A stretch of 64,000 bases of DNA, taken from Spisula solida. Taxonomy: Eukaryota > Mollusca > Bivalvia > Venerida > Mactridae. The translations under genes and the position numbers were made by a program. Below are positions 20,406-62,299 of this stretch, piece by piece. The notes beneath the pieces were generated by a model. The model saw nothing but the letters and a program-made list of their open reading frames with translations, was not told the DNA's origin and did no database searches. Location of the stretch: assembly GCA_947247005.1 (NCBI GenBank), contig OX365946.1, forward strand, positions 46,340,734 to 46,404,733. Reading direction: 5' to 3'. Positions within the stretch are counted from its first letter, which is position 1. Every line of letters starts with the position of its first letter.

Positions 20406-20409
20406 CTAT

Positions 20410-24972: not shown

Positions 24973-27900
24973 GACAGGTATTAAACTTGGAACCTCCCAG
25001 AGTATGCACCCTGCCTCTAGGCTATGGCTTCCCACATATTTGGTGATTCTGCTTAATATCACTCAGTTGACAATGTATTATCTTAAAATCCCGATGCTGG
25101 TCATAGCGTTTATTTGCCAGTCAGCATTCTGCTGAAATATGGCAGGCATATATATGTACGTGTGCCTCCACCCAGTTTTGAACCTGGGTTGCCAGATTAG
25201 ACGGCAAGCGTGCTAACCATTGAGCTGTGGAGACACACTATTGCTTCCGAACTCAGAAAACATAAAAAACATATATACAAGGCACAATGCCCAACAGAAC
25301 CAACCGAGCATATCAGAAAAAACATAAAAAACATACTAGGCACAATACTCAACTAAACAAGTAAGCGATCCACCCAAGTTCTAGTTGTCGAAAAGTAGAA
25401 TTAATTAGTTTCAGCAATCAAAATGTAGAATGAATTAGTTTCAGCAATCAAACAGCTGAACGACCCAGTTCCAAAAGTTCCACCAGTAAAACTTTGCAAT
25501 CTACCCAATTAAATTAAAAAACATACAAGGCACAATGCCCAAGTAAGCGATCTGCCCAAGTCCTAGTTGTCGCCTAAGTCCTAGTTGTCGATAAGTAGAA
25601 TGAATTAGTTTCAGCAATCGAAATGTAGAATGAATTAGTTTCAGCAATCAAACAGCTGAATGACCAAGTCCCAACAAACAGTTCCACCAGTAAAACTTTG
25701 CAATCTATCCAATTAAATTAATTATAATTGAATCAATCTTCTCCACTATCCTATAATAAATATGTTCTTGTCTTTCCTAATAGGGGTATTTAATATTGTT
25801 CATTACAACTATCTCTATTGGTATGAAGGATATCCCATGATCTATAACTGTTGTATATGTATTCTTCACTTATCTCCCTTATCATTGATATGTGTGTTAA
25901 ATGTTATGTAATTGGACCATTTAAGTATACATGAGTACAGAAATTCCAATTCTATTTTGGCATGTTATAATCTGTAAGTATGTTCTTGGTTTCAAACTGA
26001 TTTTTACATTTTTAAATGTAGTTACTTTATAATTATCTTAACAATTTGAAAGTAGGTTGAAGTTAGGTGCACTACTATGCTAGTGTTAAGTGTCATTTAA
26101 GGGTATTCTGGACATGAATCATATGGCAACATTTTGACCTGACCCTGTTTCAAATTTCATGTTAAGTTATTTTAAGGGAAAATGCATTGGACATGTGATT
26201 GAGGTTTAAGAACTATTGCTTGAAATTGTTATTTTTTAATAAATACCTCACCACTTAGGATATAAATAATGTAAGGTAGCTTTATGGAATTTCCAGACCT
26301 TATTTTTACTGGGAGTTTCATGATAGGGTTTATTTAACAATTCAATTATTGGTGGTATGTTTAGAGGAACATTCTGGACACTTAATGTTCAAATTTCATA
26401 TTAATGTTTAGGGTGAGAAACTTTTTAAACATATTTTTGTTATAAAAATGCTTTTAAATTACTTCAAATACTTTTTATCAACATATCACCTTCTTGCATA
26501 AGGGGCGTTATGATCTGAAGCTCAGCTGTCAACCTTTCTATCTTCAGTTTTAATACTGTATTTTGGCTTTTGAGCCTTGGTTATTAAAACAATTTTAGTC
26601 TATGGACTTTTGGTCAATTTTGATGACGATACAGTAGTAATAGTTTTATTTGCATAGTTTGTAATATAAGGTGATGAGTTAATGTATTTTTCCATCCATG
26701 AAATGGTTAATCATGATGGAATTTATATCTAGCTATGCAAAACAGGTCTTGGCCATTAGTTAGTGTAAAACAGTATCATTGTCCGTATGTGATACATCAT
26801 TTTATATTTTCCTATTATCTGTCAATCATGACACAGTGTAAATTGTGGTTATAACCAAATTGTAGGTATCTGTTACTGAGTTTATGGTTATATACAAGGA
26901 ATGACACCATAAGAGCTTGTGAGGATCGTAATTTAACCTTCCAACTATTTCATTTAAATAAGGTCATGTTCAATGCAAAAATGCTTTTATTATTGTATTG
27001 TATTTATCTGCCTACTATACTATAGACTACTTGACTGTTTTAATGAGAAAATTAAACAGCATTGGTTGTTTAGTTCCTCAACATTCATACAACAATGGTT
27101 GTGTTTTGTTCCTCAACATTCATCCTATATATTACCGGTATGTCAAATATAGTAGTAAAAGATGTATAATAATGGTTACCAAAGTCATGAACAGTATTTG
27201 TCACCTAAGTCACAACCATAATGGTAACCAAAGTCACAAACCATAATGGTAACCAAAGTCACAAACCATAATGGTCACCAAAGTCACAAACCAAAATGGT
27301 CACCAAAGTCACAAACCATATTGGTCACCCAAGTCACTAACGTAGTTTTTCTCCTATGTATGATTACTCATACTAACTAATGCATTTGGCTTGTAATGGT
27401 AGTCCACCAATATTCATGTATATATGTGGACCACCAATTCCTGGAATGTGGTGCTCACAGGTCTTGAAAGTATGTGCTGATAGTCTACATCAGACATGTG
27501 GATATAACTTTTTCTAGTTTGGTTTTTGTTGTACCGGTAAACCTTTTTACAATGTATAAGACATGACTGTATTTAGGTAGATAATATATTTTTTCAATAG
27601 TACACCTCAATACTATTAAACTGTATATTTTTAAACATCAAATTTGTCACTTCAACTTCCTCGTTTTCTCTTACTTGTTTTAAATTATTTTAGGTTCTTG
27701 GTCATAAAGTTTAGTAAATGTAGAGGATTACTAATGAGGTGGACTTGAGGGTCATGTGATCATTGCTCCATTATACAAGGTTAGGCAGAGAACTTGTAAA
27801 TCTCATGCCTCTTTTAGGATTTGTTTTCATTTTCATTCTTCGTTGGAATCATGAACATACTTCTAAATTAATTTGCCTATGCATTTTTATCCAATTTTGC

Positions 27901-28089
27901 TCCAATTGTCTTACTTACAAAACGACTGTTCAAACATATAACTTGGGGAGCACACTTAATAAGTATTTACTTAAATGGTTCCGATTTAGTCATTGATCAC
28001 TGACTTAATCATTGATCACTCACTTAATCAACATAGTAGGGTGACCATCACCTAATGCCTTTGGACCTGGTTATCCCTGTTGAAACATA
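24973..28089 (+). repeat. Array unit 1 (long, edge form, 3117 bp)
   Basis: Its start is the most diverged of the left ends. It keeps about 190 bp missing from all others: the repetitive module is present twice (25253-25515 and 25516-25735), while the others look deleted between the direct repeats AAAAAACATAC at 25326 and 25516. VNTR 27174-27340. Confidence 0.9.
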
Positions 28090-28353
28090 GACAGGTATCA
28101 AACTTGGAACCTCACTGAGTAAGCAGCCTGCCTCTAGGCTACGGCTTCCCAAATATTTGGCGATTCTGCTTAATATCACTCAGTTGACAATGTATTATCT
28201 TAAAATGCCAATGTTGAGCATTGCCTTTATTTGCCAGTCAGCTTTCTGCTGAAATATGGCAGGCATATATATGTATGTGTGCCTCCACCCAGTTTTGAAC
28301 CTGGGTTGCCAGATTAGACAGCAAGTGCGCTAACCATTGAGCTGTGGAGACAC
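28090..28353 (-). mobile_element. Two tRNA-derived SINE heads (representative copy, in every array unit)
   Basis: Read on the minus strand, one head has A box CAGCTCAATGG and B box GGTTCAAAACT followed by the 'gccatatttcagcagaaagc' body (28205-28353). A second head (28090-28150) has TAGCCTAGAGG and AGTTTGATACC. Both patterns repeat at the same place in all units, so the array holds about 22 pol III promoter-like heads. Confidence 0.75.
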
Positions 28354-31018
28354 ACTATTGCTTCCGAACACAGAAAACATAAAAAACATATATACAAGGC
28401 ACAATGACCAACATAACCAACCGAGCATATCAGAAAAAAACATAAAAAACATACAAGGCACAATGCCCAAGTAAGCGGTCCGCCCAAGTCCTAGTTGTCG
28501 CCTAAGTCCTAGTTGTCGATAAGTAGAATGAATTAGTTTCAGCAATCGAAATGTAGAATGAATTAGTTTCAGCAATCAAACAGCTGAATGACCAAGTCCC
28601 AACAAACAGTTCCACCAGTAAAACTTTGCAATCTATCCAATTAAATTAATTATAATTAATTCAATCTTCTCCACTATCCTATAATAAATATGTTCTTGTC
28701 TTTCCTAATAGGGGTATTTAATATTGTTCATTACAACTATCTCTATTGGTGTGAAGGATATCCCATGATCTATTACTGATGTATATGTATTCTTCACTTA
28801 TCTCCCTTATCATTGATATGTGTGTTAAATGTTATGTAATTGGACCATTTAAGTATACGTGAATACAGAAATTCCAATTCTATTTTGGCATGTTATAATC
28901 TGTAAGTATGTTCTTGGTTTCAAACTGCTTTTTACATTTTTAAATGTAGTTACTTTATAATTATCTTAACAATTTGAAAGTAGGTTGAAGTTAGGTGCAC
29001 TACTATGCTAGTGTTAAGTGTCATTTAAGGGTATTCTGGACATGAATCATATGGCAACATTTTGACCTGACCCTGTTTCAAATTTCATGTTAAGTTAATT
29101 TAAGGGAAAATGCATTGGACATGTGATTGAGGTTTAAGAACTATTGCTTGAAATTGTTATTTTTTGATAAATACCTCACCACTTAGGATATAAATAATGT
29201 AAGATAGGTTTATGGAATTTTCAGACCTTATTTTTACTGGAAGTTTTATGATAGGGTTTATTTAACAATTCAATTATTGGTGGTATGTTTAGAGGAACAT
29301 TCTGGACACTTAATGTTCAAATTTCATATTAATGTTTAGGGTGAGAAACTTTTTAAACATATTTTTGTTATAAAAATGCTTTAAAATTACTTCAAATACT
29401 TTTTATCAACATATCACCTTCTTGCATAAGGGGCGTTATGATCTGAAGCTCAGCTGTCAACCTTTCTATCTTCAGTTTTAATACTGTATTTTGGCTTTTG
29501 AGCCTTGGTTATTAAAATAATTTTAGTCTATGGACTTTTGGTCAATTTTGATGAGGATACAGTAGTAATAGTTTCATTTGCATAGTTTGTAATATAAGGT
29601 GATGAGTTAATGTATTTTTCAATCCATGAAATGGTTAATCATGGTGGAATTTATATCTAGCTATGCAAAACAGGTCTTGGCCATTAGTTAGTGTAAAACA
29701 GTATCATTGTCCGTATGTGATACATCATTTTAAATTTTCCTATTATCTGTCAATCATGACACAGTGTAAATTGTGGTTATAACCAAATTGTAGGTATCTG
29801 TTACTGAGTTTATGGTTATATACAAGGAATGACACCATAAGAGCTTGTGAGGATCGTAATTTAACCTTCCAACTATTTCATTTAAATAAGGTCATGTTCA
29901 ATGCAAAAATGCTTTTATTATTGTATTGTATTTATCTGCCTACTATACTATAGACTACTCGACTGTTTTAATGAGAAAATTAAACAGCATTGGTTGTTTA
30001 GTTCCTCAACATTCATACAACAATGGTTGTGTTTTGTTCCTCAACATTCATCCTATATATTACCGGTATGTCAAATATAGTAGTAAAAGATGTATAATAA
30101 TGGTTACCAAAGTCATAAACAGTATTTGTCACCTAAGTCACAAACCATAATGGTCACCAAAGTCACAAACCATAATGGTAACCAAAGTCACAAACCATAA
30201 TGGTCACCAAAGTCACAAACCAAAATGGTCACCCAAGTCACAAACCATATTGGTCACCAAAGTCACTAACGTAGTTTTTCTCCTATGTATGATTACTCAT
30301 ACTAACTAATGCATTTTGCTTGTAATGGTAGTCCACCAATATTCATGTATATATGTGGACCACCAATTCCTGGAATGTGGTGCTCACAGGTCTTGAAAGT
30401 ATGTGCTGATAGTCTACATTAGACATGTGGATATAACTTTTTCTAGTTTGGTTTTTGTTGTACCGGTAAACCTTTTTACAATGTATAAGACATGACTGTA
30501 TTTAGGTAGATAATATATTTTTTCAATAGTACACCTCAATACTATTAAACTGTATATTTTTAAACATCAAATTTGTCACTTCAACTTCCTTGTTTTCTCT
30601 TACTTGTTTTAAATTATTTTAGGTTCTGGGTCATAAGGTTTAGTAAATGTAGAGGATTACTAATGAGGTGGACTTGAGGGTCATGTGATCTTTGCTCCAT
30701 TATACAAGGTTAGGCAGAGAACTTGTAAATCTCATGCCTCTTTTAGGATTTGTTTTCATTTTCATTCTTCGTTGGAATCATGAACATACTTCTAAATTAA
30801 TTTGCCTATGCATTTTTATCCAATTTTGCTCCAATTGTCTTACTTACAAAACGACTGTTCAAACATATAACTTGGGGAGCACACTTAATAAGTATTTACT
30901 TAAATGGTTCCGATTTAGTCATTGATCACTCACTTAATCATTGATCACTCACTTAATCAACATAGTAGGGCGACCATCACCTAATGCCTTTGGACCTGGT
31001 TATCCCTGCTGAAACATA
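28090..31018 (+). repeat. Array unit 2 (2929 bp)
   Basis: Standard unit with SINE body at about 28205-28353 (minus) and VNTR at 30100-30269 with 6 'aagtcac' steps. Confidence 0.93.
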
Positions 31019-33944
31019 GACAGGTATCAAACTTGGAACCTCACAGAGTAAGCAGCCTGCCTCTAGGCTACGGCTTCCCAAATATTTGGCGATTCTGCTT
31101 AATATCACTCAGTTGACAATGTATTATCTTAAAATGCCAATGTTGAGCATTGCCTTTATTTGCCAGTCAGCTTTCTGCTGAAATATGGCAGGCATATATA
31201 TGTATGTGTGCCTCCACCCAGTTTTGAACCTGGGTTGCCAGATTAGACGGCAAGTGCGCTAACCATTGAGCTGTGGAGACACACTATTGCTTCCGAACAC
31301 AGAAAACATAAAAACATATATACAAGGCACAATGACCAACATAACCAACCGAGCATATCAGAAAAAAACATAAAAAACATACAAGGCACAATGCCCAAGT
31401 AAGCGATCCGCCCAAGTCCTAGTTGTCGCCTAAGTCCTAGTTGTCGATAAGTAGAATGAATTAGTTTCAGCAATCGAAATGTAGAATGAATTAGTTTCAG
31501 CAATCAAACAGCTGAATAACCAAGTCCCAACAAACAGTTCCACCAGTAAAACTTTGCAATCTATCCAATTAAATTAATTATAATTAATTCAATCTTCTCC
31601 ACTATCCTATAATAAATATGTTCTTGTCTTTCCTAATAGGGGTATTTAATATTGTTCATTACAACTATCTCTATTGGTATGAAGGATATCCCATGATCTA
31701 TAACTGTTGTATATGTATTCTTCACTTATCTCCCTTATCATTGATATGTGTGTTAAATGTTATGTAATTGGACCATTTAAGTATATGTGAATACAGAAAT
31801 TCCAATTCTATTTTGGCATGTTATAATCTGTAAGTATGTTCTTGGTTTCAAACTGCTTTTTACATTTTAAATGTAGTTACTTTATAATTATCTTAACAAT
31901 TTGAAAGTAGGTTGAAGTTAGGTGCACTATTATGCTAGTGTTATTAGTGACATTTAAGGGTATTCTGGACATGAATCATATGGCAACATTTTGACCTGAC
32001 CCTGTTTCAAATTTCATGTTAAGTTAATTTAAGGGAAAATGCATTGGACATGTGATTGAGGTTTAAGAACTATTGCTTGAAATTGTTATTTTTTGATAAA
32101 TACCTCACCACTTAGGATATAAATAATGTAAGATAGGTTTATGGAATTTTCAGACCTTATTTTTACTGGAAGTTTTATGATAGGGTTTATTTAACAATTC
32201 AATTATTGGTGGTATGTTTAGAGGAACATTCTGGACACTTAATGTTCAAATTTCATATTAATGTTTAGGGTGAGAAACTTTTTAAACATATTTTTGTTAT
32301 AAAAATGCTTTAAAATTACTTCAAATACTTTTTATCAACATATCACCTTCTTGCATAAGGGGCGTTATGATCTGAAGCTCAGCTGTCAACCTTTCTATCT
32401 TCAATTTTAATACTGTATTTTGGCTTTTGAGCCTTGGTTATTAAAACAATTTTAGTCTATGGACTTTTGGTCAATTTTGATGAGGATACAGTAGTTATAG
32501 TTTTATTTGCATAGTTTGTAATATAAGGTGATGAGTTAATGTATTTGTCCATCCATGAAATGGTTAATCATGGTGGAATTTATATCTAGCTATGCAAAAC
32601 AGGTCTTGGCCATTAGTTAGTGTAAAACTGTATCATTGTCCGTATATGATACATCATTTTATATTTTCCTATCATCTGTCAATCATGACACTGAGTGTAA
32701 ATTGTGGTTATAACCAAATTGTAGGTATCTGTTTCTGAGTTTATGGTTATATACAAGGAATGACACCATAAGAGCTTGTGAGGATCGTAATTTAATCTTC
32801 CAACTATTTCATTTAAATAAGGTCATGTTCAATGCAAAAATGCTTTTATTATTGTATTGTATTTATCTGCCTACTATACTATAGACTACTTGACTGTTTT
32901 AATGAGAAAATTAAACAGCATTGGTTGTTTAGTTCCTCAACATTCATACAACAATGGTTGTGTTTTGTTCCTCAACATTCATCCTATATATTACCGGTAT
33001 GTCAAATATAGTAGTAAAAGATGTATAATAATGGTTACCAAAGTCATAAACAGTATTTGTCACCTAAGTCACAACCATAATGGTAACCAAAGTCACAAAC
33101 CATAATGGTAACCAAAGTCACAAACCATAACGGTCACCAAAGTCACAAACCAAAATGGTCACCCAAGTCACAAACAATATTGGTCACCAAAGTCACTAAC
33201 GTAGTTTTTCTCCTATGTATGATTACTCATACTAACTAATGCATTTTGCTTGTAATGGTAGTCCACCAATATTCATGTATATATGTGGACCACCAATTCC
33301 TGGAATGTGGTGCTCACAGGTCTTGAAAGTATGTGCTGATAGTCTACATCAGACATGTGGATATAACTTTTTCTAGTTTGGTTTTTGTTGTACCGGTAAA
33401 CCTTTTTACAATGTATAAGACATGACTGTATTTAGGTAGATAATATATTTTTTCAATAGTACACCTCAATACTATTAAACTGTATATTTTTAAACATCAA
33501 ATTTGTCACTTCAACTTCCTTGTTTTCTCTTGTTTTAAATTATTTTAGGTTCTGGGTCATAAGGTTTAGTAAATGTAGAGGATTACTAATGAGGTGGACT
33601 TGAGGGTCATGTGATCATTGCTCCATTATACAAGGTTAGGCAGAGAACTTGTAAATCTCATGCCTCTTTTAGGATTTGTTTTCATTTTCATTCTTCATTG
33701 GAATCATGAACATACTTCTAAATTAATTTGCCTATGCATTTTTATCCAATTTTGCTCCAATTGTCTTACTTACAAAACGACTGTTCAAACATATAACTTG
33801 GGGAGCACACTTAATAAGTATTTACTTAAATGGTTCCGATTTAGTCATTGATCACTCACTTAATCATTGATCACTCACTTAATCAACATCGTAGGGCGAC
33901 CATCACCTAATGCCTTTGGACCTGGTTATCCCTGTTGAAACATA
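31019..33944 (+). repeat. Array unit 3 (2926 bp)
   Basis: Carries private variants shared with unit 6: a one-A deletion near 31310, 'tcaattttaat' near 32402, 'gtagttatag' near 32493, 'gacactgagtg' near 32688 and 'ctgtttctgag' near 32729. VNTR 33031-33199. Confidence 0.93.
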
Positions 33945-36900
33945 GACAGGTATCAAACTTGGAACCTCACTGAGTAAGCAGCCTGCCTCTAGGCTACGGC
34001 TTCCCAAATATTTGGCGATTCTGCTTAATATCACTCAGTTGACAATGTATTATCTTAAAATGCCAATGTTGAGCATTGCCTTCATTTGCCAGTCAGCTTT
34101 CTGCTGAAATATGGCAGGCATATATATGTATGTGTGCCTCCACCCAGTTTTGAACCTGGGTTGCCAGATAAGACGGCAAGTGCTATAAGCATTGAGCTGT
34201 GGAGACACACTATTGCTTCCGAACACAGAAAACATAAAAAACATATATACAAGGCACAATGACCAACATAACCAACCGAGCATATCAGAAAAAAAACATA
34301 AAAAACATACAAGGCACAATGCCCAAGTAAGCGATCCGCCCAAGTCCTAGTTGTCGCCTAAGTCCTAGTTGTCGATAAGTGGAATGAATTAGTTTCAGCA
34401 ATCGAAATGTAGAATGAATTACAGTCAACTCTCGTTATCTCGAATTTCACGGGACCGTGGAAATTACTTCGACATAACGAAAATTCGAGATAGAATTTTC
34501 GGCATCGAAGTTGCAAGTTTTCCAGTTTCTGTCATTTTACGCCGCCATATTGTTACGGTCGTAAGAACGACATATTCGTGAGAATTGCTTGTTGTGATAT
34601 TTATGTACATGTATTCCTCCTCGAGAAAATTCATTTTATTTTAATTATTATTTTTACAAACAATTGTTCGAGATGACATGTTTATTGATGTTAGTACGTA
34701 ACCCGAAGCTTTATGACATGTTTGCGCAAATTGTTGCAAACAAATATTTGTTCAACAATGGAAGGCGCGAAAATTACAGGTAAATCGAAGATTTTATACT
34801 GGCGAAGTGTGAAAATCATTCGACGCTAGTCGAATACGATCAGACTTCGACCCGACTTCGAGATGAACAATAGATTTAAAGTGCAAATTGGTTAATCGGG
34901 ACCAAAAAAATAATTCGACATAACGAAAAATTCGAGCCGTATTCGAGCCGAAACTTCGAGATGGGTCTCGAGAATTCATATAGACAAAGAAGGAGAAAAA
35001 TCGGGACTTGAAAAAAACTTCGACATAACGGAAAATTCGATATAAGCGAGTTCGAGATAACGAGAGTTGACTGTAGTTTCAGCAATCAAACAGCTGAATG
35101 ACCAAGTCCCAACAAACAGTTCCACCAGTAAAACTTTGCAATCTATCCAATTAAATCAATCTTCTCCACTATCCTATAATAAATATGTTCTTGTCTTTCC
35201 TAATAGGGGTATTTAATATTGTTCATTACAACTATCTCTATTGGTATGAAGGATATCCCATGATCTATAACTGTTGTATATGTATTCTTCACTTATCTCC
35301 CTTATCATTGATATGTGTGTTAAATGTTATGTAATTGGACCATTTAAGTATATGTGAATACAGAAATTCCAATTCTATTTTGGCATGTTATAATCTGTAA
35401 GTATGTTCTTGGTTTCAAACTACTTTTTACATTTTAAATGTAGTTACTTTATAATTATCTTAACAATTTGAAAGTAGGTTGAAGTTAGGTGCAGTACTAT
35501 GCTAGTGTTATTAGTGTCATTTAAGGGTATTCTGGACATGAATCATATGGCAACATTTTGACCTGACCCTGTTTCAAATTTCATGTTAAGTTAATTTAAG
35601 GGAAAATGCATTGGACATGTGATTGAGGTTTAAGAACTATTGCTTGAAATTGTTATTTTTTAATAAATACCTCACCACTTAGGATATAAATAATGTAAGA
35701 TAGGTTTATGGAATTTTCAGACCTTATTTTTACTGGAAGTTTCATGATAGGGTTTATTTACCAATTCAATTATTGGTGGTATGTTTAGAGGAACATTCTG
35801 GACTCTTAATGTTCAAATTTCATCTTAATGTTTAGGGTGAGAAACTTTTTAAACATATTTTTGTTATAAAAATGCTTTAAAATTACTTCAAATACTTTTT
35901 ATCAACATATCACCTTCTTGCATAAGGGGCGTTATGATCTGAAGCTCAGCTGTCAACCTTTCTATCTTCAGTTTTAATACTGTATTTTGGCTTTTGAGCC
36001 TTGGTTATTAAAACAATTTTAGTCTATGGACTTTTGGTCAATTTTGATGAGGATACAGTAGTAATAGTTTTATTTGCATAGTTTGTAATATAAGGTGATG
36101 AGTTAATGTATTTTTCCATCCATGAAATGGTTAATCATGGTGGAATTTATATCTAGCTATGCAAAACAGGTCTTGGCCATTAGTTAGTGTAAAACAGTAT
36201 CATTGTCCGTATGTGATACATCATTTTATATTTTCCTATTATCTGTCAATCATGACACAGTGTAAATTGTGGTTATAACCAAATTGTAGGTATCTGTTAC
36301 TGAGTTTATGGTTATATACAAGGAATGACACCATAAGAGCTTGTGAGGATCGTAATTTAACCTTCCAACTATTTCATTTAAATAAGGTCATGTTCAATGC
36401 AAAAATGCTTTTATTATTGTATTGTATTTATCTGCCTACTATACTATAGACTACTCGACTGTTTTAATGAGAAAATTAAACAGCATTGGTTGTTTAGTTC
36501 CTCAACATTCATACAACAATGGTTGTGTTTTGTTCCTCAACATTCATCCTATATATTACCGGTATGTCAAATATAGTAGTAAAAGATGTATAATAATGGT
36601 TACCAAAGTCATAAACAGTATTTGTCACCTAAGTCACAACCATAATGGTAACCAAAGTCACAAACCATAATGGTAACCAAAGTCACAAACCATAATGGTC
36701 ACCAAAGTCACAAACCAAAATGGTCACCCAAGTCACAAACCATAATGGTCACCAAAGTCACTAACGTAGTTTTTCTCCTATGTATGATTACTCATACTAA
36801 CAAATTTATGCATTTTGCTTGTAATGGTAGTCCACCAATATTCATGTATATATGTGGACCACCAATTCCTGGAATGTGGTGCTCACAGGTCTTGAAAGTA

Positions 36901-37517
36901 TGTGCTGATAGTCTACATCAGACATGTGGATATAACTTTTTCTAGTTTGGTTTTTGTTGTACCGGTAAACCTTTTTACAATGTATAAGACATGACTGTAT
37001 TTAGGTAGATAATATATTTTTTCAATAGTACACCTCAATACTATTAAACTGTATATTTTTAAACATCAAATTTGTCACTCCAACTTCCTTGTTTTCTCTT
37101 ACTTGTTTTAAATTATTTTAGGTTCTGGGTCATAAGGTTTAGTAAATGTAGAGGATTACTAATGAGGTGGACTTGAGGGTCATGTGATCATTGCTCCATT
37201 ATACAAGGTTAGGCAGAGAACTTGTAAATCTCATGCCTCTTTTAGGATTTGTTTTCATTTTCATTCTTCGTTGGAATCATGAACATACTTCTAAATTAAT
37301 TTGCCTATGCATTTTTATCCAATTTTGCTCCAATTGTCTTACTTACAAAACGACTGTTCAAACATTCAACTTGGGGAGCACACTTAATAAGTATTTACTT
37401 AAATGGTTCCAATTTAGTCATTGATCACTCACTTAATCATTAATCACTCACTTAATCAACATAGTAGGGCGACCATCACCTAATGCCTTTGGACCTGGTT
37501 ATCCCTGCTGAAACATA
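33945..37517 (+). repeat. Array unit 4 (3573 bp, transposon-bearing)
   Basis: Standard unit enlarged by the element at 34422-35073. Its SINE head 2 has lost part of the A-box region ('agtgctataagcattgag'). VNTR 36597-36763. Confidence 0.93.
34422..35073. mobile_element. Pogo-like non-autonomous DNA transposon, 652 bp, inside array unit 4
   Basis: Inverted ends begin CAGTCAACTCTCGTTATC and are perfect for 23 bp. TA flanks both sides (34420-34421 and 35074-35075), and the uninterrupted 'gaattagtttcag' of the other units is the empty site with one TA. The string 'cgacataacgaaaattcgag' and variants recur inside each end as subterminal repeats. No transposase is encoded. TA duplication and CAGT ends point to the Tc1/mariner-pogo group; assignment to pogo is my judgement. 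Confidence 0.9.
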
Positions 37518-46363: not shown

Positions 46364-49300
46364 GACAGGTATCAAACTTGGAACCTCACTGAGTAAGCAG
46401 CCTGCCTCTAGGCTACGGCTTCCCAAATATTTGGCGATTCTGCTTAATATCACTCAGTTGACAATGTATTATCTTAAAATGCCGATGCTGAGCATTGCCT
46501 TTATTTGCCAGTCAGCTTTCTGCTGAAATATGGCAGGCATATATATGTATGTGTGCCTCCACCCAGTTTTGAACCTGGGTTGCCAGATTAGACGGCAAGT
46601 GCGCTAACCATTGAGCTGTGGAGACACACTATTGCTTCCGAACACAGAAAACATAAAAAACATATATACAAGGCACAATGACCAACATAACCAACCGAGC
46701 ATATCAGAAAAAAACATAAAAAACATACAAGGCACAATGCCCAAGTAAGCGATCCGCCCAAGTCCTAGTTGTCGCCTAAGTCCTAGTTGTCGATAAGTAG
46801 AATGAATTAGTTTCAGCAATCGAAATGTAGAATGAATTAGTTTCAGCAATCAAACAGCTGAATGACCAAGTCCCAACAAACAGTTCCACCAGTAAAACTT
46901 TGCAATCTATCCAATTAAATTAATTATAATTAATTCAATCTTCTCCACTATCCTATAATAAATATGTTCTTGTCTTTCCTAATAGGGGTATTTAATATTG
47001 TTCATTACAACTATCTCTATTGTTATGAAGGATATCCCATGATCTATAACTGTTGTATATGTATTCTTCACTTATCTCCCTTATCATTGATATGTGTGTT
47101 AAATGTTATGTAATTGGACCATTTAAGTATATGTGAATACAGAAATTCCAATTCTATTTTGGCATGTTATAATCTGTAAGTATGTTCTTGGTTTCAAACT
47201 GCTTTTTACATTTTAAATGTAGTTACTTTATAGTTATCTTAACAATTTGAAAGTAGGTTGAAGTTAGGTGCACTATTATGCTAGTGTTATTAGTGTCATT
47301 TAAGGGTATTCTGGACATGAATCATATGGCAACATTTTGACCTGACCCTGTTTCAAATTTCATGTTAAGTTAATTTAAGGGAAAATGCATTGGACATGTG
47401 ATTGAGGTTTAAGAACTATTGCTTGAAATTGATATTTTTAATAAATACCTCACCACTTAGGATATAAATAATGTAAGATAGGTTTATGGAATTTTCAGAC
47501 CTTATTTTTACTGGAAGTTTCATGATAGGGTTTATTTAACAATTCAATTATTGGTGGTATGTTTCGAGGAACATTCTGGACACTTAATGTTCAAATTTCA
47601 TATTAATGTTTAGGATGAGAAACTTTTTAAACATATTTTTGTTATAAAAATGCTTTAAAATTACTTCAAATACTTTTTATCAACATATCACCTTCTTGCA
47701 TAAGGGGCGTTATGATCTGAAGCTCAGCTGTCAACCTTTCTATCTTCAGTTTTAATACTGTATTTTGGCTTTTGAGCCTTGATTATTAAAACAATTTTAG
47801 TCTATGGACTTTTGGTCAATTTTGATGAGGATACAGTAGTAATAGTTTTATTTGCATAGTTTGTAATATAAGGTGATGAGTTAATGTATTTTTCCATCCA
47901 TGAAATGGTTAATCATGGTTGAATTTATATCTAGCTATGCAAAACAGGTCTTGGCCATTAGTTAGTGTAAAACAGTATCATTGTCCGTATGTGATACATC
48001 ATTTTATATTTTCCTATTATCTATCAATCATGACACAGTGTAAATTGTGGTTATAACCAAATTGTAGGTATCTGTTACTGAGTTTATGGTTATATACAAG
48101 GAATGACGCCATAAGAGCTTGTGAGGATCGTAATTTAACCTTCCAACTATTTCATTTAAATAAGGTCATGTTCAATGCAAAAATGCTTTTATTATTGTAT
48201 TGTTTTTATCTGCCTACTATACTATAGACTACTTGACTGTTTTAATGAGAAAATGAAACAGCATTGGTTGTTTAGTTCCTCAACATTCATACAACAATGG
48301 TTGTGTTTTGTTCCTCAACATTCATCCTATATATTACCGGTATGTCAAATATAGTAGTAAAAGATGTATAATAATGGTTACCAAAGTCATAAACAGTATT
48401 TGTCACCTAAGTCACAACCATAATGGTAACCAAAGTCACAAACCATAATGGTAACCAAAGTCACAAACCATAATGGTCACCAAAGTCACAAACCAAAATG
48501 GTCACCCAAGTCACAAACCAAAATGGTCACCCAAGTCACAAACCATAATGGTCACCAAAGTCACAAACCAAAATGGTCACCAAAGTCACAAACCATATTG
48601 GTCACCAAAGTCACAAACCAAAATGGTCACCCAAGTCACAAACCATATTGGTCACCAAAGTCACTAACGTAGTTTTTCTCCTATGTATGATTACTCATAC
48701 TAACAAATTTATGCATTTTGCTTGTTATGGTAGTCCACCAATATTCATGTATATATGTGGACCACCAATTCCTGGAATGTGGTGCTCACAGGTCTTGAAA
48801 GTATGTGCTGATAGTCTACATCAGACATGTGGATATAACTTTTTCTAGTTTGGTTTTTGTTGTACCGGTAAACCTTTTTACAATGTATAAGACATGACTG
48901 TATTTAGGTAGATAATATATTTTTTCAATAGTACACCTCAATACTATTAAACTGTATATTTTTAAACATCAAATTTGTCACTCCAACTTCCTTGTTTTCT
49001 CTTACTTGTTTTAAATTATTTTAGGTTCTGGGTCATAAGGTTTAGTAAATGTAGAGGATTACTAATGAGGTGGACTTGAGGGTCATGTGATCATTGCTCC
49101 ATTATACAAGGTTAGGCAGAGAACTTGTAAATCTCATGCCTCTTTTAGGATTTGTTTTCATTTTCATTCTTCGTTGGAATCATGAACATACTTCTAAATT
49201 AATTTGCCTATGCATTTTTATCCAATTTTGCTCCAATTGTCTTACTTACAAAACGACTGTTCAAACATATAACTTGGGGAGCACACTTAATAAGTATTTA

Positions 49301-49420
49301 CTTAAATGGTTCCGATTTAGTCATTGATCACTCACTTAATCATTGATCACTCACTTAATCAACATAGTAGGGCGACCATCACCTAATGCCTTTGGACCTG
49401 GTTATCCCTGCTGAAACATA
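46364..49420 (+). repeat. Array unit 8 (3057 bp)
   Basis: VNTR expanded to 11 steps (48375-48665). Otherwise standard. Confidence 0.93.
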
Positions 49421-52380
49421 GACAGGTATCAAACTTGGAACCTCACTGAGTAAGCAGCCTGCCTCTAGGCTACGGCTTCCCAAATATTTGGCGATTCTGC
49501 TTAATATCACTCAGTTGACAATGTATTATCTTAAAATGCCAATGTTGAGCATTGCCTTTATTTGCCAGTCAGCTTTCTGCTGAAATATGGCAGGCATATA
49601 TATGTATGTGTGCCTCCACCCAGTTTTGAACCTGGGTTGCCAGATTAGACGGCAAGTGCGCTAACCATTGAGCTGTGGAGACACACTATTGCTTCCGAAC
49701 ACAGAAAACATAAAAAACATATATACAAGGCACAATGACCAACATAACCAACCGAGCATATCAGAAAAAAACATAAAAAACATACAAGGCACAATGCCCA
49801 AGTAAGCGATCCGCCCAAGTCCTAGTTGTCGCCTAAGTCCTCGTTGTCGATAAGTAGAATAAATTAGTTTCAGAAATCAAAATGTAGAATGAATTAGTTT
49901 CAGCAATCAAACAGCTGAATGACCAAGTCCCAACAAACAGTTCCACCAGTAAAACTTTGCAATCTATCCAATTAAATTTCATCTCCTGCTTCATTACAAC
50001 TATCTCTATTGGTATGAAGGATATCCCATGATCTATAACTGTTGTATATGTATTCTTCACTTATCTCCCTTATCATTGATATGTGTGTTAAATGTTATGT
50101 AATTGGACCATTTAAGTATATGTGAATACAGAAATTCCAATTCTATTTTGGCATGTTATAATCTGTAAGTATGTTCTTGGTTTCAAACTGCTTTTTACAT
50201 TTTAAATGTAGTTACTTTATAATTATCTTAACAATTTGAAAGTAGGTTGAAGTTAGGTGCACTACTATGTTAGTGTTATTAGTGTCATTTAAGGGTATTC
50301 TGGACATGAATCATATGGCAACATTTTGACCTGACCCTGTTTCAAATTTCATGTTAAGTTAATTTAAGGGAAAAATGCATTGGACATGTGATTGAGGTTT
50401 AAGAACTATTGCTTGAAATTGTTATGTTTTAATAAATACCTCACAACTTAGGATATAAATAATGTAAGGTAGCTTTATGGGATTTTCAGACCTTATTTTT
50501 ACTGGTAGTTTCATGATAAGGTTTATTTAACAATTCAATTATTGGTGGTATATTTAGAGGAACATTCTGGACACTTAATGTTCAAATTTCATATTAATGT
50601 TTAGGGTGAGAAACTTTTTAAACATATTTTTGTTATAAAAATGCTTTTAAATTACTGCAAATACTTTTTATTAACATATCACCTTCTTGCATAAGGGGCG
50701 TTATGATCTGAAGCTCAGCTGTCAACCTTTCTATCTTCAGTTTTAATACTGTATTTTGGCTTTTGAGCCTTGGTTATTAAAACAATTTTAGTCTATGGAC
50801 TTTTGGTCAATTTTGATGAGGATACAGTAGTAATAGTTTTATTTGCATAGTTTGTAATATAAGGTGATGAGTTAATGTATTTTTCCATCCATGAAATGGT
50901 TAATCATGGTGGAATTTATATCTAGCTATGCAAAACAGGTCTTGGCCATTAGTTAGTGTAAAACAGTATCATTGTTCGTATGTGATACATCATTTTATAT
51001 TTTCCTATTATCTGTCAATCATGACACAGTGTAAATTGTGGTTATAACCAAATTGTAGGTATCTGTTACTGAGTTTATGGTTATATACAAGGAATGACAC
51101 CATAAGAGCTTGTGAGGATCGTAATTTAACCTTCCAACTATTTCATTTAAATAAGGTCATGTTCAATGCAAAAATGCTTTTATTATTGTATTGTATTTAT
51201 CTGCCTACTATACTATAGACTACTTGACTGTTTTAATGAGAAAATTAAACAGCATTGGTTGTTTAGTTCCTCAACATTCATACAACAATGGTTGTGTTTT
51301 GTTCCTCAACATTCATCCTATATATTACCGGTATGTCAAATATAGTAGTAAAAGATGTATAATAATGGTTACCAAAGTCATAAACAGTATTTGCCACCTA
51401 AGTCACAACCATAATGGTAACCAAAGTCACAAACCATAATGGTAACCAAAGTCACAACCATAATGGTAACCAAAGTCACAACCATAATGGTAACCAAAGT
51501 CACAAACCATAATGGTCACCAAAGTCACAAACCAAAATGGTCACCAAAGTCACAAACCATATTGGTCACCAAAGTCACAAACCAAAATGGTCACCCAAGT
51601 CACAAACCATATTGGTCACCAAAGTCACTAACGTAGTTTTTCTCCTATGTATGATTACTCATACTAACAAATGCATTTTGCTTGTAATGGTAGTCCACCA
51701 ATATTCATGTATATATGTGGACCACCAATTCCTGGAATGTGGTGCTCACAGGTCTTGAAAGTATGTGCTGATAGTCTACATCAGACATGTGGATATAACT
51801 TTTTCTAGTTTGGTTTTTGTTGTACCGGTAAACCTTTTTACAATGTATAAGACATGACTGTATTTAGGTAGATAATATATTTTTTCAATAGTACACCTCA
51901 ATACTATTAAACTGTATATTTTTTAACATCAAATTTGTCACTTCAACTTCCTTGTTTTCTCTTACTTGTTTTAAATTATTTTAGGTTCTGGGTCATAAGG
52001 TTTAGTAAATGTAGAGGATTACTAATGAGGTGGACTTGAGGGTCATGTGATCAGTGCTCCATTATACAAGGTTAGGCAGAGAACTTGTAAATCTCATGCC
52101 TCTTTTAGGATTTGTTTTCATTTTCATTCTTCGTTGGAATCATGAACATACTTCTAAATTAATTTGCCTATGCATTTTTATCCAATTTTGCTCCAATTGT
52201 CTTACTTACAAAACGACTGTTCAAACATATAACTTGGGGAGCACACTTAATAAGTATTTACTTAAATGGTTCCGATTTAGTCATTGATCACTCACTTAAT
52301 CATTGATCACTCACTTAATCAACATAGTAGGGCGACCATCACCTATTGCCTTTGGACCTGGTTATCCCTGCTGAAACATA
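49421..52380 (+). repeat. Array unit 9 (2960 bp)
   Basis: First unit with the 'aaatttcatctcctgcttc' junction (about 49974) replacing about 70 bp present in units 1-8. VNTR 51366-51630 (10 steps). Confidence 0.93.
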
Positions 52381-55239
52381 GACAGGTATCAAACTTGGAA
52401 CCTCACTGAGTAAGCAGCCTGCCTCTAGGCTACGGCTTCCCAAATATTTGGCGATTCTGCTTAATATCACTCAGTTGACAATGTATTATCTTAAAATGCC
52501 AATGTTGAGCATTGCCTTTATTTGCCAGTCAGCTTTCTGCTGAAATATGGCAGGCATATATATGTATGTGTGCCTCCACCCAGTTTTGAACCTGGGTTGC
52601 CAGATTAGACGGCAAGTGCGCTAACCATTGAGCTGTGGAGACACACTATTGCTTCCGAACACAGAAAACATAAAAAACATATATACAAGGCACAATGACC
52701 AACATAACCAACCGAGCATATCAGAAAAAAACATAAAAAACATACAAGGCACAATGCCCAAGTAAGCGATCCGCCCAAGTCCTAGTTGTCGCCTAAGTCC
52801 TCGTTGTCGATAAGTAGAATAAATTAGTTTCAGAAATCAAAATGTAGAATGAATTAGTTTCAGCAATCAAACAGCTGAATGACCAAGTCCCAACAAACAG
52901 TTCCACCAGTAAAACTTTGCAATCTATCCAATTAAATTTCATCTCCTGCTTCATTACAACTATCTCTATTGGTATGAAGGATATCCCATGATCTATAACT
53001 GTTGTATATGTATTCTTCACTTATCTCCCTTATCATTGATATGTGTGTTAAATGTTATGTAATTGGACCATTTAAGTATATGTGAATACAGAAATTCCAA
53101 TTCTATTTTGGCATGTTATAATCTGTAAGTATGTTCTTGGTTTCAAACTGCTTTTTACATTTTAAATGTAGTTACTTTATAATTATCTTAACAATTTGAA
53201 AGTAGGTTGAAGTTAGGTGCACTACTATGTTAGTGTTATTAGTGTCATTTAAGGGTATTCTGGACATGAATCATATGGCAACATTTTGACCTGACCCTGT
53301 TTCAAATTTCATGTTAAGTTAATTTAAGGGAAAATGCATTGGGCATGTGATTGAGGTTTAAGAACTATTGCTTGAAATTGTTATTTTTTAATAAATACCT
53401 CACCACTTAGGATATAAATAATGTAAGATAGGTTTATGGAATTTTCAGACCTTATTTTTACTGGAAGTTTCATGATAGGGTTTATTTAACAATTCAATTA
53501 TTGGTGGTATGTTTAGAGGAACATTCTGGACACTTAATGTTCAAATTTCATATTAATGTTTAGGGTGAGAAACTTTTTAAACATATTTTTGTTATAAAAA
53601 TGCTTTTAAATTACTTCAAATACTTTTTATCAACATATCACCTACTTGCATAAGGGGTGTTATGATCTGAAGCTCAGCTGTCAACCTTTCTATCTTCAGT
53701 TTTAATACTGTATTTTGGCTTTTGAGCCTTAGTTATTAAAACAATTTTAGTCTATGGACTTTTGGTCAATTTTGATGAGGACACAGTAGTAATAGTTTTA
53801 TTTGCATAGTTTGTAATATAAGGTGATGAGTTAATGTATTTTTCCATCCATGAAATGGTTAATCATGGTGGAATTTATATCTAGCTATGCAAAACAGGTC
53901 TTGGCCATTAGTTAGTGTAAAACAGTATCATTGTCCGTATGTGATACATCATTTTATATTTTCCTATTATCTGTCAATCATGACACAGTGTAAATTGTGG
54001 TTATAACCAAATTGTAGGTATCTGTTACTGAGTTTATGGTTATATACAAGGAATGACACCATAAGAGCTTATGAGGATCGTAATTTAACCTTCCAACTAT
54101 TTCATTTAAATAAGGTCATGTTCAATGCAAAAATGCTTTTATTATTGTATTGTATTTATCTGCCTACTATACTATAGACTACTTGACTGTTTTAATGAGA
54201 AAATTAAACAGCATTGGTTGTTTAGTTCCTCAACATTCATAGAACAATGGTTGTGTTTTGTTCCTCAACATTCATCCTATATATTACCGGTACGTCAAAT
54301 ATAGTAGTAAAAGATGTATAATAATGGTTACCAAAGTCATAAACAGTATTTGTCACCTAAGTCACAACCATAATGGTAACCAAAGTCACGAACCATAATG
54401 GTAACCAAAGTCACAAACCATAATGGTCACCGAAGTCACAAACCAAAATGGTCACCCAAGTCACAAACCATATTGGTCACCAAAGTCCCTAACGTAGTTT
54501 TTCTCATATGTATGATTACTCATACTAACTAATGCATTTTGCTTGTAATGGTAGTCCACCAATATTCATGTATATATGTGGACCACCAATTCCTGGAATG
54601 TGGTGCTCACAGGTCTTGAAAGTAAGTGCTGATAGTCTACATCAGACATGTGGATATAACTTTTTCTAGTTTGGTTTTTGTTGTACCGGTAAACCTTTTT
54701 ACAATGTATAAGACATGACTGTATTTAGGTAGATAATATATTTTTTCAATAGTACACCTCAATACTATTAAACTGTATATTTTTAAACATCAAATTTGTC
54801 ACTTCAACTTCCTTGTTTTCTCTTACTTGTTTTAAATTATTTTAGGTTCTGGGTCATAAGGTTTAGTAAATGTAGAGGATTACTAATGAGGTGGACTTGA
54901 GGGTCATGTGATCATTGCTCCATTATACAAGGTTAGGCAGAGAACTTGTAAATCTCATGCCTCTTTTAGGATTTGTTTTCATTTTCATTCTTCGTTGGAA
55001 TCATGAACATACTTCTAAATTAATTTGCCTATGCATTTTTATCCAATTTTGCTCCAATAGTCTTACTTACAAACGACTGTTGAACATATAACTTGGGGAG
55101 CACACTTAATAAGTATTTACTTAAATGGTTCCGATTTAGTCATTGATCACTCACTTAATCATTGATCACTCACTTAATCAACATAGTAGGGCGACCATCA
55201 CCTAATGCCTTTGGACCTGGTTATCCCTGCTGAAACATA
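52381..55239 (+). repeat. Array unit 10 (2859 bp)
   Basis: Its first 800 bp are almost identical to unit 9, including 'tcctcgttgtcgataag' and 'cagaaatcaaaatg'. VNTR 54326-54490 (6 steps). Small deletions near 55070 disrupt the 77-codon frame. Confidence 0.93.
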
Positions 55240-58200
55240 GACAGGTATCAAACTTGGAACCTCACTGAGTAAGCAGCCTGCCTCTAGGCTACGGCTTCCC
55301 AAATATTTGGCGATTCTGCTTAATATCACTCAGTTGACAATGTATTATCTTAAAATGCCAATGTTGAGCATTGCCTTTATTTGCCAGTCAGCTTTCTGCT
55401 GAAATATGGCAGGCATATATATGTATGTGTGCCTCCACCCAGTTTTGAACCTGGGTTGCCAGATTAGACGGCAAGTGCGCGAACCATTGAGCTGTGGAGA
55501 CACACTATTGCTTCCGAACACAGAAAACATAAAAAACATATATACAAGGCACAATGACCAACATAACCAACCGAGCATATCAGAAAAAAAACATAAAAAA
55601 CATACAAGGCACAATGCCCAAGTAAGCGATCCGCCCAAGTCCTAGTTGTCGCCTAAGTCCTAGTTGTCGATAAGTAGAATGAATTAGTTTCAGCAATCGA
55701 AATGTAGAATGAATTAGTTTCAGCAATCAAACAGCTGAATGACCAAGTCCCAACAAACAGTTCCACCAGTAAAACTTTGCAATCTATCCTATTAAATTTC
55801 ATCTCCTGCTTTATTACAACTATCTCTATTATATGGTATGAAGGATATCCCATGATCTATAACTGTTGTATATGTATTCTTCACTTATCTCCCTTATCAT
55901 TGATATGTGTGTTAAATGTTATGTAATTGGACCATTTAAGTATATGTGAATACAGAAATTCCAATTCTATTTTGGCATGTTATAATCTGTAAGTATGTTC
56001 TTGGTTTCAAACTGCTTTTTACATTTTAAATGTAGTTACTTTATAATTATCTTAACAATTTGAAAGTAGGTTGAAGTTAGGTGCACTACTATGCTAGTGG
56101 TATTAGTGTCATTTAAGGGTATTCTGGACATGAATCATATGGCAACATTTTGACCTGACCCTGTTTCAAATTTCATGTTAAGTTAATTTAAGGGAAAATG
56201 CATTGGACATGTGATTGAGGTTTAAGAACTATTGCTTGAAATTGATATTTTTTAATAAATACCTCACCACTTAGGGTATAAATAATGTAAGGTAGCTTTA
56301 TGGAATTTTCAGACCTTATTTTACTGGAAGTTTCATGATAGGGTTTATTTAACAATTCAATTATTGGTGGTATGTTTAGAGGAACATTCTGGACACTTAA
56401 TGTTCAAATTTCATATTAATGTTTAGGGTGAGAAACTTTTTAAACATATTTTTGTTATAAAAATGCTTTAAAATTACTTCAAATACTTTTTATCAACATA
56501 TCACCTTCTTGCATAAGGGGCGTTATGATCTGAAGCTCAGCTGTCAACCTTTCTATCTTCAGTTTTAATACTGTATTTTGGCTTTTGAGCCTTGGTTATT
56601 AAAACAATTTTAGTCTATGGACTTTTGGTCAATTTTGATGAGGATACAGTAGTAATAGTTTTATTTGCATAGTTTGTAATATAAGGTGATGAGTTAATGT
56701 ATTTTTCCATCCATGAAATGGTTAATCATGGTGGAATTTATATCTAGCTATGCAAAACAGGTCTTGGCCATTAGTTAGTATAAAACAGTATCATTGTCCG
56801 TATATGATACATCATTTTATATTTTCCTATTATCTGTCAATCATGACACAGTGTAAATTGTGGTTATAACCAAATTGTAGGTATCTGTTACTGAGTTTAT
56901 GGTTATATACAAGGAATGACACCATAAGAGCTTGTGAGGATCGTAATTTAACCTTCCAACTATTTCATTTAAATAAGGTCATGTTCAATGCAAAAATGCT
57001 TTTATTATTGTATTGTATTTATCTGCCTACTATACTATAGACTACTTGACTGTTTTAATGAGAAAATTAAACAGCATTGGTTGTTTAGTTCCTCAACATT
57101 CATACAACAATGGTTGTGTTTTGTTCCTCAACATTCATCCTATATATTACCGGTATGTCAAATATAATAGTAAAAGATGTATAATAATGGTTACCAAAGT
57201 CATAAACAGTATTTGTCACCTAAGTCACAACCATAATGGTAACCAAAGTCACAAACCATAATGGTAACCAAAGTCACAAACCAAAATGGTCACCCAAGTC
57301 ACAAACCATAATGGTCACCAAAGTCACAAACCATAACGGTCACCAAAGTCACAAACTATAATGGTAACCAAAGTCACAAACCATAATGGTCACCAAAGTC
57401 ACAAACCATAATGGTCACCAAAGTCACAAACCAAAATGGTCACCCAAGTCACAAACCATAATGGTAACCAAAGTCACAAACCAAAATGGTCACCCAAGTC
57501 ACAAACCAAAATGGTCACCCAAGTCACAAACCATATTGGTCACCAAAGTCACTAACGTAGTTTTTCTCCTATGTATGATTACTCATACTAACTAATGCAT
57601 TTTGCTTGTAATGGTAGTCCACCAATATTCATGTATATATGTGGACCACCAATTCCTGGAATGTGGTGCTCACAGGTCTTGAAAGTATGTGCTGATAGTC
57701 TACATCAGACATGTGGATATAACTTTTTCTAGTTTGGTTTTTGTTGTACCGGTAAACTTCTTTACAATGTATAATACATGACTGTATTTAGGTAGATAAT
57801 ATATTTTTTCAATAGTTCACCTCAATACTATTAAACTGTATATTTTTAAACATCAAATTTGTCACTTCAACTTCCTTGTTTTCTCTTACTTGTTTTAAAT
57901 TATTTTAGGATCTGGGTCATAAGGTTTAGTAAATTTAGAGGATTACTAATGAGGTGGACTTGAGGGTTATGTGATCATTGCTCCATTATACAAGGTTAGG
58001 CAGAGAACTTGTAAATCTCATGCCTCTTTTAAGATTTGTTTTTCAATTTCATTCTTCATTGGAATCATGAACATACTTCTTACTGAATTTGTCTATGCAT
58101 GTTTATCCAATTTTGCTCCTATTGTCTTACTTACAAAACGACTGTTCAAACATTCAACTCAGGGAGCACACTTAATAAGTATTTACTTAAATGGTTCCGA

Positions 58201-58277
58201 TTTAGTCATTGATCACTCACTAAGTCAACATAGGGCTACCTAATGCCTTTGGACCTGGTTATCCCTGCTGAAACAAT
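55240..58277 (+). repeat. Array unit 11 (right edge, 3038 bp)
   Basis: Same junction as units 9 and 10 (about 55794). Longest VNTR, 14 steps (57187-57553). The last 300 bp or so are clearly more diverged and have one 'cattgatcactcact' where other units have two. Confidence 0.9.
57187..57553 (+). repeat. 25-bp VNTR, longest copy (14 steps), in array unit 11
   Basis: The unit is 'aaaccataatggtcaccaaa' plus 'gtcac', with variants ataatgg/aaaatgg/atattgg and gtaacc/gtcacc/gtcaccc. Copy number across units 1-11 is 6, 6, 6, 6, 6, 8, 7, 11, 10, 6, 14 (counting 'aagtcac' or its variant). Confidence 0.92.
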
Positions 58278-58432
58278 AGATCTGCCATCACCTCACGCCA
58301 TGTGACCCAGTTATTCCTGCTGAAGCATAGAGCTGCCATCACCTCACGCCATTGGACCTGGTAATCCCTGCTGGAAAATACCGCTGCCATCCCCTCACGC
58401 CATTGGACCCAATGAGCACATAGCGTTTCACT
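58226..58432 (+). repeat. 51-bp repeat at the right edge of the array
   Basis: 'ctgccatcacctcacgccat' starts at 58282, 58333 and, varied, 58384 (spacing 51). The last array unit ends in a related copy, 'ctaatgcctttggacctggt', and one such copy closes each array unit. Confidence 0.85.
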
Positions 58433-60120: not shown

Positions 60121-60199
60121 TTTGTGGCGGGAGTTTAATATATATGATGTTTGGGTAAAAAATTACCTTCTTCAATATGTTCTTTATACTGAAATGTAT

Positions 60200-62260: not shown

Positions 62261-62299
62261 AGCAAGATGTATATCAAGTGCAAATCAGTAAAAACCTTG

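What the first reader, a model, noticed from the sequence alone, without database searches (positions are those of the whole stretch)
24973..58277. A 33-kb, 11-unit macrosatellite with a composite 2.93-kb unit
The sequence shows 11 head-to-tail copies that are nearly identical in the interior. Each unit mixes SINE pieces, a repetitive module, unique DNA and a VNTR. Large arrays of this kind (such as D4Z4 or DXZ4 in mammals) can be copy-number variable and chromatin-active; whether this one is either is unknown.
Basis: partly seen in the sequence, partly recalled or inferred. Interest (0 to 1): 0.85.

Follow-up and report, generated by a model that had tools for sequence, protein, structure and literature searches.

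The report
An 11-copy, 33-kb tandem repeat array
A 2.9-kb piece of apparently non-coding animal DNA near a splicing-factor gene is repeated head to tail eleven times; it looks like a passive repeat array shaped by exchange between copies, with a mutation pattern that hints at DNA methylation.

Summary
The window holds 11 complete head-to-tail units at 24973-58282 (consensus 2929 bp, range 2859-3573). Interior units are 98.14-99.10% identical, almost regardless of distance. Units carry a tRNA-like SINE, an 18/30-bp repetitive module, about 2.2 kb of other DNA, a 25-bp VNTR (7-15 copies) and one copy of a 51-bp minisatellite that continues beyond the right edge.

The array lies about 15 kb upstream of the first coding exon found of an animal CDC5L gene. 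Its two outer ends are about 10% diverged. Blocks shared by non-adjacent units, and site conflict that grows with distance, show exchange. Simulated steady unequal exchange reproduces the diverged ends and, with larger shifts, the flat identity, but rarely the excess of private variants (103 of 131), which suggests a recent expansion.

No conserved core, no domain above cutoff in the unit scanned (U02) and no convincing CTCF-like core were found. I read it as a passive macrosatellite: a new member of a known kind.

One lead is unexpected: the unit is CpG-depleted and CpG transitions are about five times more frequent than at other C/G sites, the footprint of germline methylation. Depletion also reaches parts of the flanks, so it may not be the array's own property. 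Copy-number variation, uniqueness and species could not be tested.

The parts
24973..58282 (.). Whole array, 11 complete head-to-tail units
24973..28089 (+). U01 (3117 bp), left edge unit; first 150 bp 10% diverged; 188-bp private insertion (repeated module)
28090..31018 (+). U02 (2929 bp)
31019..33944 (+). U03 (2926 bp)
33945..37517 (+). U04 (3573 bp), carries a private TIR-element insertion
37518..40422 (+). U05 (2905 bp)
40423..43402 (+). U06 (2980 bp)
43403..46363 (+). U07 (2961 bp)
46364..49420 (+). U08 (3057 bp)
49421..52380 (+). U09 (2960 bp), shares 14-bp and 54-bp deletions with U10 and U11
52381..55239 (+). U10 (2859 bp)
55240..58280 (+). U11 (3041 bp), right edge unit; last two consensus bins 7.4% and 10.6% diverged; VNTR of 15 copies
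28280..28351 (-). tRNA-like SINE head in U02 (corresponding stretches in the other units by BLAST)
   Evidence: Rfam tRNA model matched end to end at 17.0 bits, below the gathering score of 29; second copy at 5343-5460, 83-85% identical to the unit copies
28481..28591 (+). Repetitive module in U02: 18-bp and 30-bp short tandem repeats; a piece at 63346-63438 matches the module of U01 at 83%
30097..30270 (+). 25-bp VNTR in U02 (7 copies; about 7-15 among units)
34422..35073 (.). 652-bp TIR element inserted in U04 only: 23-bp perfect terminal inverted repeats, TA on both sides; no Pfam match in the 94-aa frame tested
58238..58411 (+). 51-bp minisatellite at the right edge; one copy of it forms the right end of the units, so the right breakpoint of the founding duplication lies in it

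Best explanation
A passive, non-coding macrosatellite. Shown: 11 whole units with the same junction, as expected if one local segment of about 2.9 kb, running from a SINE-like stretch on the left to inside a 51-bp minisatellite on the right, was duplicated in tandem. Shown: units have exchanged sequence since, while the outermost ends have stayed diverged. Inferred: copy number grew and fluctuated by unequal exchange between misaligned units, with a comparatively recent expansion that left mostly private variants. Inferred: the SINE, module and VNTR are passengers already in the segment; the VNTR changes by slippage; a TIR element later landed in U04. Most likely the array has no selected function. 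It probably sits in a germline-methylated stretch of chromatin.
For: Integral units and shared junction. Outer ends diverged: U01 first 150 bp 10.0%, U11 last two bins 7.4% and 10.6%, lower inwards. Identity flat with distance in U02-U10, lag means 98.49-98.69%; lag-1 to lag-4-8 divergence ratio 0.92. Incompatible site pairs rise with distance: 1 of 30 (1-50 bp), 9 of 39, 28 of 85, 75 of 193, 90 of 248 (1001-3000 bp); U03 and U06 alone share consensus sites 1387, 1479, 1656 and 1715. Simulated unequal exchange at matched diversity gives mean end divergence of 9-14% in 3 of 4 settings and 18-23% in the fourth. Private variants 103 of 131 in U02-U10 against 41% expected; Tajima D -1.54. Near star-like tree: ultrafast bootstrap 97 for U09+U10 and 86 for U09-U11, others 65 or less. 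Longest SNV-free stretch 109 bp, P 0.33. No domain above cutoff in six frames of U02.
Against: Steady exchange alone reaches the observed private fraction in 0-6.2% of the 40-65 diversity-matched runs per setting, and private fraction and flatness jointly in 0-0.7% of 150 runs per setting, so the expansion is an added assumption. Residual sequencing error would look similar (private ts/tv 66/53 with the VNTR counted, shared 18/12; private 55/48 without it). Some inner bins also stand out (U09 and U10 5.0% at 451-600, U09 5.3% at 1051-1200, U11 4.2% at 451-600). The junction microhomology is 2 bp (GA), too short to prove a mechanism. Adjacent units do not share significantly more minor alleles than in shuffled order (18 against 12.0, P 0.15), and identity does not fall with distance as it does in simulations limited to single-unit shifts (ratio 0.35-0.37) or up to two (0.67). 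Absence of function cannot be shown from one haplotype.
Confidence: 0.75

Rival explanations
1. On the CpG signal: the array lies inside the transcribed, methylated body (a long intron or long non-coding transcript) of a neighbouring gene, and its CpG depletion is ordinary invertebrate gene-body methylation. This is compatible with a passive array.
For: CpG o/e is 0.27 in the array without the U04 insert and 0.26 in the consensus, like the CDC5L part (0.38 over 1-10000), against 0.66-1.06 in four 2.9-kb windows at 10.5-22.2 kb and 0.55 and 0.71 in two at 58.3-64 kb. Depletion continues into parts of the flanks: 0.22 at 24321-24972, 0.39 at 23700-24320, 0.36 at 59176-60020.
Against: No Pfam exon above cutoff other than CDC5L in six frames of 10000-24972 and 58281-64000; no transcript data. 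Depletion is uneven at the flanks (0.70 at 22900-23700, 0.74 at 60021-61000).
Confidence: 0.35
2. On the CpG signal: repeat-triggered methylation, the tandem array itself attracts DNA methylation in the germline.
For: CpG transitions among units: 11 of 410 cells against 49 of 9009 at other C/G positions, Fisher P 5e-5; by sites 9 of 40 against 36 of 858, P 8e-5. The reverse, CpG-creating transitions, are at background (14 of 4164 against 40 of 15260, P 0.41). In the Pacific oyster SINEs are the most methylated repeat class, and satellites and tandem repeats are twice background (PMC4378273, passages read). The bivalve satellite SSUsat is methylated at three times the genome mean (PMC5537241, abstract read).
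Against: Stretches outside the array are depleted too. The CpG-rich U04 insert (o/e 2.15) is not depleted: it is young, or methylation is not array-wide. A small control, a 36-bp array in CpG-normal DNA, has 7 of 60 against 7 of 110, ratio 1.8, P 0.25, too small to rule out a raised CpG rate there. Polarity is by majority, no outgroup.
Confidence: 0.3
3. A functional regulatory array that works like DXZ4 or D4Z4, acting on CDC5L or on chromosome folding.
For: Position about 15 kb upstream of the first CDC5L coding exon found; unit size close to 3 kb.
Against: GC 33%; no CTCF-like core better than shuffles; no domain above cutoff; no conserved stretch.
Confidence: 0.05
4. Assembly artefact: the copy number is inflated or collapsed.
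For: One assembly only; no reads available.
Against: Each interior unit has 8-17 private substitutions, and VNTR and unit lengths differ.
Confidence: 0.07

Closest known systems
Human macrosatellites such as the TAF11-Like, SST1, PRR20 and ZAV arrays (PMC3018141, passages read)
   Same: Units of several kb, head to tail at one or a few loci, copy numbers in the range reported there (3 to 98 in the passages seen)
   Different: Those are reported to vary in copy number and to be expressed; neither could be tested here. No gene was found in this unit.
DXZ4 (PMC3218863, abstract read) and D4Z4 (PMC13138017, search listing)
   Same: About 3-kb unit in a tandem array; 11 copies lies within the 8 to >100 given for D4Z4
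   Different: DXZ4 is described as GC-rich with a promoter and CTCF site; this array is AT-rich and no such site was detected. The DUX4 gene of D4Z4 (recalled) has no counterpart in U02.
Bivalve satellite DNAs, e.g. SSUsat of Spisula (PMC5537241, abstract read)
   Same: Tandem repeat with methylation above background (measured for SSUsat, only inferred here)
   Different: SSUsat is at least 1.3% of the genome and lies mostly in heterochromatin; here a 2.9-kb composite unit at the one locus seen, genome-wide abundance unknown

Membership tests
Macrosatellite | Tandem head-to-tail units of several kilobases | tested here: met
   11 units of 2859-3573 bp
Macrosatellite | Confined to one or two chromosomal places | not testable with these tools
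   The own-genome search was unanswered six times; one place in the 64-kb window
Macrosatellite | Copy number varies between individuals | not testable with these tools
   One haplotype only
DXZ4-like regulatory array | GC-rich unit | tested here: not met
   Array GC 33.3%
DXZ4-like regulatory array | CTCF site in each unit | tested here: not met
   Best core in the unit consensus has 3 mismatches, as many as or more than in 99 of 100 shuffles; crude consensus recalled from memory
D4Z4-like array | Homeobox gene (DUX4, recalled) in each unit | tested here: not met
   No homeobox in six frames of U02, the one unit scanned; only a sub-threshold DUF5301 match, E 0.073
tRNA-derived SINE (the piece in the unit) | tRNA-like head with A and B boxes | tested here: inconclusive
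   Full-length tRNA model match at 17.0 bits, E 0.63, below gathering 29; ARAGORN none; boxes read by eye with recalled motifs
tRNA-derived SINE (the piece in the unit) | Dispersed copies elsewhere in the genome | tested here: inconclusive
   One further copy seen, 5343-5460 in opposite orientation, 83-85% identical, between CDC5L exons; the rest of the genome was not searchable

The most novel reading that the evidence does not exclude
The array is itself a target of germline DNA methylation in an invertebrate whose methylation is otherwise mostly in gene bodies: tandem repetition would recruit methylation near a housekeeping gene, so array length would set a local chromatin domain, as at D4Z4.
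Probability: 0.15. Interest if true: 0.6.

Novelty: new member of a known kind. Interest (0 to 1): 0.3.

Why it matters
Multi-kilobase arrays are well known in mammals (search listing). A search of the open library for macrosatellite with bivalve found two papers, neither with the terms in title or abstract. Passages of one were read; it uses the word for crayfish repeats above 100 bp. The other was not read, and most subscription papers are not held. If the window is molluscan, this is a well-resolved example in which every unit can be told apart, so exchange between units can be followed directly. It also offers a place to test whether tandem repeats attract DNA methylation in an invertebrate, where 5mC is said to concentrate on transcribed genes and in some species transposable elements (abstract of PMC11292947 in the listing).

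Tried and rejected
Protein-coding unit: the roughly 94-aa stop-to-stop frame is listed in 9 of 11 units (not U08 and U10) at 80 aa or more, and six frames of U02 gave no domain above cutoff. Structured RNA unit: in the window no Rfam match reached its gathering score (four matches with E up to 1). Conserved core: the longest SNV-free stretch is within chance. Purely steady unequal exchange: fits the edges, rarely the private-variant excess. CTCF-type function: no support. Relatives elsewhere: a 27-base SINE pattern had no exact match in viral contigs or genome contigs, and a 27-base VNTR pattern none in viral contigs (collections of viruses and prokaryotes, so weak evidence). Searches with an 81-aa frame of U02 and a 94-aa frame of the U04 insert found no protein. 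Species: the CDC5L exon frame (202 aa) gave 160 relatives, 120 listed; named ones with the best scores were fish (Archocentrus, 61%), bird (Meleagris, 54%), gastropod (Batillaria, 59%) and rodent (Cricetulus, 54%), so the species stays unknown. A second tRNA-like fragment at the very left end of the unit (28090-28150, minus strand) is my reading by eye with recalled box motifs; the tRNA model did not report it.
Full report
OBSERVATION. One unit compared with the window gives a continuous head-to-tail series from 24973 to about 58280. Counted from the sharp left limit (24973) to the right limit (58280-58282) there are 11 whole units and no partial one. The aligned consensus is 2929 bp; lengths run from 2859 to 3573 bp. 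The differences come mainly from VNTR length, a 652-bp insertion in U04, a 188-bp insertion in U01 and deletions shared by U09-U11. Identity is 98.14-99.10% among U02-U10.

ANATOMY OF A UNIT. From left to right (U02 as example): a SINE-like stretch with a tRNA-like head on the minus strand at 28280-28351. It matches the Rfam tRNA model end to end but below threshold (17.0 bits against 29), and a related copy in the opposite orientation lies at 5343-5460. Next comes a module of 18-bp and 30-bp repeats; the module of U01 matches a piece at 63346-63438. Then follow about 1.5 kb without other match in the window and a 25-bp VNTR with 7, 7, 7, 7, 7, 9, 8.3, 12, 11, about 7 and 15 copies in U01 to U11 (U10 was missed by that script and is taken). 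About 0.7 kb more leads to a last stretch that is one copy of a 51-bp minisatellite, which continues outside the array to 58411. No Pfam domain above cutoff is found in six frames of U02 and no Rfam match reaches gathering in the window.

SURROUNDINGS. An animal CDC5L gene lies on the minus strand: a Myb repeat at about 10.07-10.19 kb, a second Myb exon in 9332-9544 and the Myb_Cef region in 2491-3099. The best solved match is a Cell division cycle 5-like chain (5mqf, human by recall). The array begins about 15 kb upstream of the first coding exon found. No other Pfam match above cutoff was found in six frames of 10000-24972 and 58281-64000. A sub-threshold DUF6451 match near 22.45 kb (E 1.3e-4, 22.2 bits against 28) was not followed up.

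ORIGIN. The unit junctions read from the minisatellite into the SINE-like stretch, while the outer left and right flanks each carry only one side of that junction. This is what one tandem duplication of a local segment gives. The two sides share only GA at the junction, too little to name a mechanism. The mixed content of the unit would then simply be what lay between the two breakpoints.

TURNOVER. The first 150 bp of U01 differ from the interior consensus by 10.0%, followed by 3.3, 2.7 and 1.3%. The last three bins of U11 differ by 3.3, 7.4 and 10.6% (the last bin is 79 bp). Other bins of U01 lie at 0-2.7%; U09-U11 share a raised bin at 451-600 (4.2-5.0%) and U09 has 5.3% at 1051-1200. Of 191 biallelic sites without gaps and outside the VNTR, 35 have the minor allele in two or more units. 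Pairs of these show all four combinations in 1 of 30 pairs at 1-50 bp, 9 of 39 at 51-150, 28 of 85 at 151-400, 75 of 193 at 401-1000 and 90 of 248 beyond. Blocks are shared by non-adjacent units. These facts fit exchange between units in which the ends take little part.

I simulated steady unequal exchange with a simple model of my own. First came 8 settings of 60 runs, then 4 settings of 150 runs nearer the observed diversity. In the 40-65 diversity-matched runs per setting, mean end divergence was 0.087-0.144 in three settings and 0.18-0.23 in the fourth, against about 0.10 observed. The mean divergence ratio of near to far units was 0.35-0.37 with single-unit shifts, 0.67 with up to two, 0.79-0.89 with up to three and 1.12 with up to five; observed 0.92. 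The observed private fraction (103 of 131 variants in U02-U10) was reached in 0-6.2% of the matched runs per setting. So steady exchange alone is unlikely, and a recent expansion is the simplest addition. Residual sequencing error cannot be excluded: private variants have ts/tv 66/53, shared ones 18/12.

CONSTRAINT. The longest stretch free of substitutions in U02-U10 is 109 bp, against 103 expected (P 0.33); in all units 77 against 75 (P 0.39). There is no sign of a protected core.

CpG. The consensus has 21 CpG where mononucleotide shuffles give 79 (sd 7.5). C-to-T and G-to-A changes at CpG occur in 11 of 410 cells against 49 of 9009 at other C/G positions (P 5e-5), and at 9 of 40 CpG positions against 36 of 858 others (P 8e-5). 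The VNTR, the first 600 positions of U01 and the positions of U11 beyond 2400 were left out. CpG-creating transitions are not raised (14 of 4164 against 40 of 15260, P 0.41). Polarity is by majority among units. This is the footprint expected of germline CpG methylation. Depletion is shared with the CDC5L part (0.38) but not with 10.5-22.2 kb (0.66-1.06 in four windows; 0.55 and 0.71 in two windows right of the array). Against an array-specific cause: DNA just left of the array has o/e 0.22 and 59176-60020 has 0.36, so the domain is wider than the array or the founding segment was already depleted. The U04 insert has o/e 2.15, consistent with a young insertion. A small control array in CpG-normal DNA gave 7 of 60 against 7 of 110 (P 0.25) and decides nothing.

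COMPARISON. The word macrosatellite fits by unit size and order (definition from passages of PMC3018141); copy-number variation and restriction to one locus are untested. The likeness to DXZ4 or D4Z4 ends at unit size and copy number (abstract of PMC3218863; listing). In the oyster, SINEs are the most methylated repeat class and tandem repeats are above background (passages of PMC4378273), so methylation here would not be without precedent.

VERDICT. A real, well-resolved and probably passive tandem array; ordinary in kind, interesting mainly as a record of exchange between units and as a place to test repeat methylation.

Noticed in passing
window 23045-23099 (+), with a partial tandem copy from 22920: A type-P1 twister ribozyme-like sequence (Rfam RF03160, 47.6 bits, below gathering 67.2, E 1.9e-7 for the window), matched over the whole model with one hairpin mostly missing, at the end of an 83-bp tandem pair (22920-23075), 1.9 kb left of the array. 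A library search for twister ribozyme with bivalve gave no paper.
   Followed up: partly
window 34422-35073: A 652-bp CpG-rich TIR element (23-bp perfect terminal inverted repeats, TA on both sides) inserted in one unit only; related pieces lie within 19053-19262.
   Followed up: partly
window 1625-2233: A 67-bp tandem repeat, 9.1 copies, 99% matches, in the CDC5L region.
   Followed up: no
window 23728-24299 and 59340-60020: Arrays of about 150-158-bp repeats lie on either side of the macrosatellite. The whole-window self-comparison showed no match between them at E 1e-8; the left one matches 5757-5979.
   Followed up: no
window 9000-12000: CpG o/e in 1-kb bins goes from 0.34 (9-10 kb) to 0.65 and 1.21 just upstream of the first CDC5L coding exon found, like a gene-body methylation boundary.
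   Followed up: partly
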